NCBI RefSeq assembly: GCF_003860135.1
Contig: NZ_RQYN01000010.1
Span: forward strand, 1 to 64,000
Length of the DNA stretch: 64,000 nt
Direction: 5' to 3'
Source of the DNA: Tannerella forsythia
Lineage (GTDB): Bacteria; Bacteroidota; Bacteroidia; Bacteroidales; Tannerellaceae
Part shown: positions 28,397-30,750 of the stretch, one piece after another
Position numbering within the stretch: position 1 is the first letter of the stretch
Layout: every line of letters starts with the position of its first letter
The notes under the pieces: model-generated
Databases searched by the model: none
What the model saw: the letters and a program-made list of their open reading frames with translations, nothing else
Told to the model about the DNA's origin: nothing
Position numbers and translations under genes: made by a program

Positions 28397-28404
28397 TACT
28401 TTTG
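28397..28404 (+). promoter_or_regulatory. -7 element TACTTTTG of the outer-membrane barrel gene
   Basis: TAnnTTTG match 22 bases before the ATG at 28427. The -33 is unclear. Confidence 0.5.
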
Positions 28405-28426: not shown

Positions 28427-29026
28427 ATGAAAAAAGGAGGATTAATACTGATGATGTGCCTGCTTTCGTGGGCGATGGAAGCCAAGATTACATGGGGTGC
28501 CCGAGCGGGTTTATCATACAGCTCATTGACGCAGATTGTCGACGACCAAGTCACGTATGGCGGCCGGTTGGGATTCAGCGTAGCCGGGTTGGCCGACATC
28601 CCGCTTTCACGCAAATTTTCCATCTGTCCGGAACTTGCATTCGTCAATCAGGGCGGCTCATACGGCTATATCTTTTTGGTCAACGATAACAGAAAACAAG
28701 GGCAACATACATGCAACTATTACTCGCTTCAGTTACCCGTTAATTTAGTGTATAAGATCAATCTCGGCAGTTGGCAGATGGGTATTCAAGCCGGCCCGTT
28801 CTTCTCCGTTTCCACACGAGAGCGGGAGCGTCACGAATGGAAAACCCGCGATTTCAGACCGTTCGACATTGGTGCAGGAACAGGACTCTATGTCGAGCAC
28901 CGGCGCGTTTTCTTCTCCGTATATGCCCAAACGGGATTTATCAATAAACTACGGGAAAAGCAACCGTCTGAATCGCAGATTTATCAAAACGACGTGACTT
29001 TTTCGTTCGGCTACCGGTTTCGATGA
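28427..29026 (+). CDS. Outer-membrane beta-barrel protein (PorT-like)
   Basis: A signal peptide (about 1-19, ending AMEA) precedes about 180 residues of alternating hydrophobic and polar strands with aromatic girdles. The protein ends in VTFSFGYRFR, with a terminal aromatic strand typical of barrels inserted by BAM. It begins its mature part with TWGARAGLSYSSL, the usual first strand of the Bacteroidetes PorT/OMP_b-brl_2 group. About eight strands are likely. The ligand or role is unknown. It is followed by the interrupted gene at 29123. Confidence 0.8.
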   Translation: MKKGGLILMMCLLSWAMEAKITWGARAGLSYSSLTQIVDDQVTYGGRLGFSVAGLADIPLSRKFSICPELAFVNQGGSYGYIFLVNDNRKQGQHTCNYYSLQLPVNLVYKINLGSWQMGIQAGPFFSVSTRERERHEWKTRDFRPFDIGAGTGLYVEHRRVFFSVYAQTGFINKLREKQPSESQIYQNDVTFSFGYRFR

Positions 29027-29122: not shown

Positions 29123-30223
29123 ATGAAAAAGTTATCCTCTTTATCCGTGATGTTATTATGTTGGGTGTAATTGACCCTGGCGCAAAACGCCGGTCGTTTT
29201 CCGTCTTTCGATCGTGTCGAAGATATATGCTATTGCGCCGTGCAATTTCTACATCCTCGTCAGGTTGTTAAAAACAGCAACAATTACGAGATATTGTTGG
29301 TGCTACGCCACCCAATGACACTTGAGGAGCTTGCTGCCACCGGTATCCCACACAGCGAGAACCAAATCCTGCTCTTACAGTCGCAACGCCTGATCGAGCG
29401 CGATGGCAACACGTACCGGACAACGATCCCCATTCTCGACAGTTTGCAAACAAGCGCCTTACGAGCCGATTCATACGAGACCGGAAAAATACTTGTCCCC
29501 GAAATCGTCGACGACTGTCGAAATCTGGTCGAGCACCTTTCGTCCGAAGGGATGCCCCATCATGCATTCAGCCTCCTTTTCTCTTACGTCCTCGACGGAA
29601 AAATCTGGAAAGTGATGGAAAAAGAAAACATGGTGACCGGACGCAACAAAGAGAGTCACGAATCGTGGGAGGGCAATTATTGGATACTGTACAACAAGCG
29701 AAAAACCTTGCAATGCGGAACAAATACAATGAACGCGCGCGGAAAGTATTCGCTCAAAATCAATTGGTCGGACGACCTGATTCGTATGGCAAGCCCTCTT
29801 TTCAGCTCGAAGAACCTGAACGCTTTTTTGAAAGAAATCGATGCAAACGATAAGGTTTCCGAACCTTCGGCATTCTCATTTTTTACCGAAATCGGAGTGA
29901 TCCGTCCGGATGGTTCCATCAACATCCCGATTATTGAAGATTCCGAAGCAAACAGCATTCATGTTTTTGCCGAGACGATTAGCGACAAACTTACAGAAGC
30001 GCTCCAAACAAAGATCGATATCGAAGCCATCACTCACAAATACGGCTTTTCCGATACGCATGAAGCAATGGTTATTTTCTACCACGAAGTCATGTGGGAC
30101 ATCCTTGGCGAGTTGGTGGAACGAGGTGTTGTACATCGACCGGCCGTCTTTGCTTCCCCTCAAACAGCCAAGCTGTCCGATGTGCGCGATCTATGCTTCC
30201 TACTTCGCGAAAATAACGAATAG
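29123..30223 (+). pseudogene. Exported hypothetical protein interrupted by a stop codon in its signal peptide
   Basis: An ATG at 29123 opens MKKLSSLSVMLLCWV, then TAA (29168-29170), then in the same frame LTLAQNAGRFPSF and 350 further codons without a stop. The pieces together make a convincing signal peptide with cleavage after ALAQ-like LAQ, so the stop is a nonsense mutation in an exported protein. Translation from TTG at 29171 would give a protein without a signal. The body has no family I recognise; it looks alpha-helical with segments such as HHAFSLLFSYVLDGKIWKVME. The coding body shows no other damage, so the mutation is recent, a sequencing error, or is bypassed. Confidence 0.75.
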
Positions 30224-30288
30224 CACTTCGCTACAACAGAAAAATCACTACATTTGTCGCGTAAGACGATATAAAAACTGAAGATATA

Positions 30289-30750
30289 ATGAAAAAGAAA
30301 TTAACGATAGCACTCGTAGCACACGATAACCGTAAGGTCGATATGATCGACTGGGCCGTCTTCAACGCCGACTTTCTGGCTGCACACAACCTCGTTTGCA
30401 CCGGCACGACCGGCACGCTGATTCGCGACGCCTTCGAAAAGCGGGGCATCGAATACAGCAACATCCGCTGTATGCACTCAGGCCCGATGGGGGGAGATAC
30501 CGAAATTGCCGCCATGGTGGTACGCAAGGAGATCAATCTCGCCGTATTCCTGATCGACGACCTCAACCCGCAGCCGCACGAGGCCGACATCCAGATGCTC
30601 CTGCGACAGTGCCGCGTTCACAACGTACCCATCGCGTGCAACCGTTACAGCGCTGACTTGATGATTACCAGCAGCCTTTGGGACGACGACGCGTATGAGC
30701 CGATGGAACCGAAATATGCTCCGTTTAACCGAGAGAACTATCCGGTATAA
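30289..30750 (+). CDS. mgsA: Methylglyoxal synthase
   Basis: Converts dihydroxyacetone phosphate to methylglyoxal and phosphate, a bypass of lower glycolysis when phosphate is short. Conserved blocks are AHDNRKVDMIDW (9-20), TGTTGTLIRDAF, SGPMGGDTEIAAMV with the catalytic Asp, and NRYSADLMI. Length 153 aa is standard. It is monocistronic and converges with the TPR gene, with 12 bases between the two stops. Confidence 0.96.
   Translation: MKKKLTIALVAHDNRKVDMIDWAVFNADFLAAHNLVCTGTTGTLIRDAFEKRGIEYSNIRCMHSGPMGGDTEIAAMVVRKEINLAVFLIDDLNPQPHEADIQMLLRQCRVHNVPIACNRYSADLMITSSLWDDDAYEPMEPKYAPFNRENYPV

What the first reader, a model, noticed from the sequence alone, without database searches (positions are those of the whole stretch)
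29123..30223. In-frame stop inside an otherwise perfect signal peptide
MKKLSSLSVMLLCWV-stop-LTLAQ continues in the same frame for 350 codons. The stop at 29168-29170 is the only lesion. It would block export and probably expression, yet the body shows no decay. It may be a very recent mutation, a phase-variable or strain-specific loss, an assembly error, or a TTG start giving a cytosolic form.
Basis: seen in the sequence. Interest (0 to 1): 0.6.

Follow-up and report, generated by a model that had tools for sequence, protein, structure and literature searches.

The report
Recent stop mutation in signal peptide
A gene for an uncharacterised exported protein in a Tannerella bacterium has a single premature stop codon inside its export signal that is absent from every relative examined, so it is most likely an ordinary, recently broken gene copy.

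Summary
In detail: a TAA at 29168-29170 (codon 16) interrupts an otherwise intact 366-codon frame, inside the signal peptide. The genome is a Tannerella draft close to T. forsythia. Three Tannerella relatives with the gene (two close) and six complete, more distant Bacteroidota homologues have an uninterrupted signal peptide, so the family is exported and the stop is particular to this genome. The body shows no decay: lineage dN/dS is 0.22 against 0.19 in the sister lineage, there is no other lesion, and no family-conserved residue has changed. Across 126 matched gene-like ORFs (about 48,000 codons) the sampled contigs show no comparable lesion except a transposase remnant, so general poor assembly is unlikely. 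The TTG after the stop has the context of a random internal codon; the original ATG has a strong one. No suppressor tRNA was found. Best reading: a recent nonsense mutation that abolishes export and probably expression. Rivals: a single base-call error (no reads available), or weak re-initiation at TTG giving a cytosolic form. The protein belongs to no named family; its N-terminal domain resembles a winged helix. Low interest.

The parts
29123..29167 (+). 5' remnant: ATG start and 15 codons of a type I signal peptide (n- and h-region)
   Evidence: start context at the 78th percentile of presumed real starts and above nearly all internal start-like codons
29168..29170 (+). premature TAA stop (codon 16); a sense codon in the close relatives
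29171..29173 (+). TTG directly after the stop; the only nearby in-frame candidate for re-initiation
   Evidence: context score at the 58th percentile of internal start-like codons
29174..30223 (+). intact body: end of the signal peptide plus mature protein with a winged-helix-like N-terminal domain (model residues about 25-87)
28427..29026 (+). upstream co-directional gene, PF13568 outer-membrane beta-barrel; likely on the same transcript (96-bp gap; the nearest upstream -7-like motif is at 28397, before this gene)
   Evidence: co-transcription is inferred
30289..30750 (+). downstream methylglyoxal-synthase-like gene (PF02142) with its own -7-like motif at 30249

Best explanation
A recent nonsense substitution in this Tannerella lineage put an ochre stop at codon 16 of a gene for a secreted (Sec/SPI-type) protein of unknown function. 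Translation starts at the normal ATG 29123 and ends after a 15-residue peptide made of part of a signal peptide; the 350-codon body is not exported and is probably hardly translated. Shown: the stop, its absence in relatives, conservation of the signal peptide, and lack of decay of the body. Inferred: that the base call is right and that re-initiation is negligible.
For: Close relatives (Tannerella sp. MAG S17M_Sa_42, 94% aa; T. forsythia ATCC 43037, about 90%) and a 34%-identical Tannerella copy have an uninterrupted signal peptide. Six complete, more distant homologues in other Bacteroidota also have signal peptides and no internal stop. Body substitutions on this lineage: 14 synonymous, 11 nonsynonymous, dN/dS 0.22, against 0.19 in the sister lineage. 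Fully neutral evolution since the split is rejected (P about 2e-4); the neutral fraction is estimated at about 4%, upper bound about 34%. 0 of 44 family-conserved columns changed. No other internal lesion among 120 full-length matched gene-like ORFs of the sampled contigs; one partial match is a broken transposase. No TAA-reading tRNA among the detected tRNA genes.
Against: No second genome of the same species and no reads were available, so fixation and the base call itself are unproved. Normal constraint on the body would also fit a body that is still translated (TTG form).
Confidence: 0.77

Rival explanations
1. Base-call or assembly error: the real genome has an intact gene and the stop is an artefact of the draft.
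For: The genome is a 226-contig draft; the lesion is one codon in an otherwise undecayed gene; no reads available.
Against: About 48,000 codons of conserved gene-like ORFs in the sampled contigs show no comparable spurious stop or frameshift; the site is not in a homopolymer or repeat.
Confidence: 0.12
2. TTG at 29171 serves as the start (by direct initiation or termination-coupled re-initiation), giving a cytosolic MTLAQ... form of the protein.
For: TTG follows the stop without a gap, and the body shows normal constraint.
Against: Its upstream context scores -3.1 (8th percentile of presumed real starts, 58th of internal codons) while ATG 29123 scores 6.2. Every complete homologue has an upstream signal peptide, and conserved cysteines (C22 invariant; C20 and C182 nearly so) fit an exported protein. 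No promoter-like -7 motif lies between 28427 and 29171.
Confidence: 0.08
3. The stop is read through (suppressor tRNA or programmed recoding), so that some full-length exported protein is made.
For: The frame continues intact after the stop.
Against: No tRNA with an anticodon for TAA, TAG or TGA was found by ARAGORN at the 44 Rfam tRNA places; ochre stops are in general read through poorly (established knowledge); no relative has a stop here.
Confidence: 0.03

Closest known systems
Recent bacterial pseudogenes formed by a single nonsense substitution
   Same: One stop near the 5' end, intact body, intact copies in relatives, normal dN/dS up to the event.
   Different: Nothing found that sets it apart; it lies in the signal peptide and is followed by a possible TTG start.
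Uncharacterised exported Bacteroidota protein family (T. forsythia ATCC 43037 contig058 152815-153912 and homologues)
   Same: About 90% identical body, same signal-peptide position, same neighbours (beta-barrel gene, mgsA-like gene, TPR gene, dnaE).
   Different: All other members read through codon 16 without a stop.
Winged-helix DNA-binding domains (MarR, ArsR, PadR and related regulators)
   Same: Model residues about 25-87 superpose on winged helices at Z up to about 7 over 50-80 residues.
   Different: No significant Foldseek match (best E about 1.1), no Pfam match, and the family is exported; a resemblance of one subdomain only, so function cannot be inferred.

Membership tests
Nonsense pseudogene (recent) | premature stop in an otherwise homologous gene | tested here: met
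Nonsense pseudogene (recent) | intact orthologues in close relatives | tested here: met
Nonsense pseudogene (recent) | little or no decay of the remaining frame | tested here: met
Nonsense pseudogene (recent) | loss of the protein product | not testable with these tools
   needs proteomics or a reporter
Phase-variable gene | lesion in a slippable tract or an invertible segment | tested here: not met
   substitution outside repeats; only weak inverted repeats nearby
Stop-codon suppression | tRNA able to read the stop | tested here: not met
   none among the tRNA genes found; the draft may be incomplete
Winged-helix transcription regulators | winged-helix fold over a DNA-binding domain | tested here: inconclusive
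   subdomain match with Z up to about 7, within the tool's own noise; no Pfam or significant Foldseek match

The most novel reading that the evidence does not exclude
The stop is maintained, and the TAA-TTG junction turns an exported winged-helix-like protein into a cytosolic, possibly regulatory form in this species by re-initiation.
Probability: 0.05. Interest if true: 0.5.

Novelty: new member of a known kind. Interest (0 to 1): 0.13.

Why it matters
It matters little in itself: it is a clear example of a gene caught soon after a nonsense mutation, and it shows that annotating this frame as a 350-residue cytosolic protein with a TTG start would probably be wrong. It also points to a small uncharacterised exported Bacteroidota family with conserved cysteines and a predicted winged-helix-like domain, without a Pfam or NCBIfam name.

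Tried and rejected
Phase variation was rejected (no slippable tract, only weak inverted repeats). Suppressor tRNA: none found. General assembly decay: no excess of lesions; apparent 'stops' in those scans lay in over-extended starts or in the last codons, and one partial match was a transposase remnant. Pfam, NCBIfam and PDB sequence searches gave no family. A first structure model with 4 sequences was poor (pLDDT 63); with 10 sequences it was good (88), but Foldseek gave no significant match. The TAA counted inside the G703 match is that gene's own terminal stop. A paper on Tannerella pangenomics (PMC13298647) reports pseudogene frequency by oral site; a term search of it showed nothing on this gene.

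Full report
Observation. The frame at 29123-30223 (+) reads MKKLSSLSVMLLCWV, then TAA at 29168-29170, then LTLAQNAGRF... for 350 further codons to a normal stop.

Which organism. The window lies in contig C216 of a 226-contig, 3.3-Mb draft genome. A third Tannerella genome, complete in one contig, holds a 34% identical copy in another neighbourhood. Four of 41 genomes of the genus have the gene, this one included; many of the others are incomplete.

Relatives are intact. Both close relatives, in the same neighbourhood, and the distant Tannerella copy carry one uninterrupted frame with an ATG or GTG start and a signal peptide ending near A-Q, with no stop where the window has one. Profile searches of 395 genomes of the class and 393 of the order found the family in eight more, two of these as a fragment or a marginal match. 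The six complete proteins all begin with a signal peptide (judged by eye).

Age of the lesion. With the MAG as sister and T. forsythia as outgroup, the body has gathered 14 synonymous and 11 nonsynonymous changes on this lineage (dN/dS 0.22), against 15 and 10 (0.19) on the sister lineage. Neutral evolution over the whole branch is rejected (P about 2e-4). The best estimate of the neutral fraction of the branch is 4%, upper bound near 34% (29-41% under other assumed constraints). None of 44 columns conserved in at least 8 of the 9 other sequences has changed. The stop is therefore recent, or the body is still made.

Artefact or real. Comparison of the sampled contigs with 126 matched gene-like ORFs of T. 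forsythia (120 full length, about 48,000 codons) found apparent stops only in over-extended starts or within the last codons, plus one transposase remnant with a frameshift and a stop. The target gene itself did not pass the third-position filter of that scan; its stop appears in the unfiltered scan. The assembly is thus not generally error-prone, but a single wrong base cannot be excluded without reads.

Can the body be translated? A position matrix from 211 ATG-starting long ORFs of this genome scores ATG 29123 at 6.2 (78th percentile of presumed real starts, above nearly all internal start-like codons) and TTG 29171 at -3.1 (8th percentile of presumed real starts, 58th percentile of internal codons). 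The only Bacteroidota -7-like motif upstream in the scanned stretch lies before the beta-barrel gene, at 28397, which suggests a shared transcript. No tRNA that would read TAA was found at the 44 Rfam tRNA places. Re-initiation at a TTG adjoining the stop is possible in principle but has no positive support.

What the protein is. No Pfam or NCBIfam family matches. A ten-sequence AlphaFold2 model is good (pLDDT 88, pTM 0.87). Foldseek against the PDB gives nothing significant; a structural second look places residues about 25-87 on winged-helix domains at Z up to about 7, which that tool regards as within its noise. Conserved cysteines (C22 invariant, C20 and C182 nearly so) would fit disulfides or a metal site outside the cytoplasm (inference). 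The molecular function is unknown.

Verdict. Most likely an ordinary, recent nonsense mutation that removes export and probably expression of an uncharacterised secreted protein.

Noticed in passing
L108 (G000:C195:9170-9244, minus strand): A weak tRNA-like gene (36.7 bits) to which ARAGORN gives no amino acid and a four-base anticodon (agga); it may be a degraded or mobile-element tRNA.
   Followed up: partly
G000:C1:44412-45378 (L048): A transposase-like gene broken by a frameshift and an in-frame stop; its T. forsythia relative is intact.
   Followed up: partly
window 29171-30220 and homologues L110, L114-L118: A small, patchily distributed Bacteroidota family of exported proteins with a winged-helix-like N-terminal domain and conserved ICYC and CGTN motifs, without a Pfam or NCBIfam name.
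   Followed up: partly
window 28427-29026: The upstream beta-barrel gene (PF13568) differs more between these Tannerella genomes (86% aa identity to T. forsythia) than its neighbours dnaE and mgsA.
   Followed up: no
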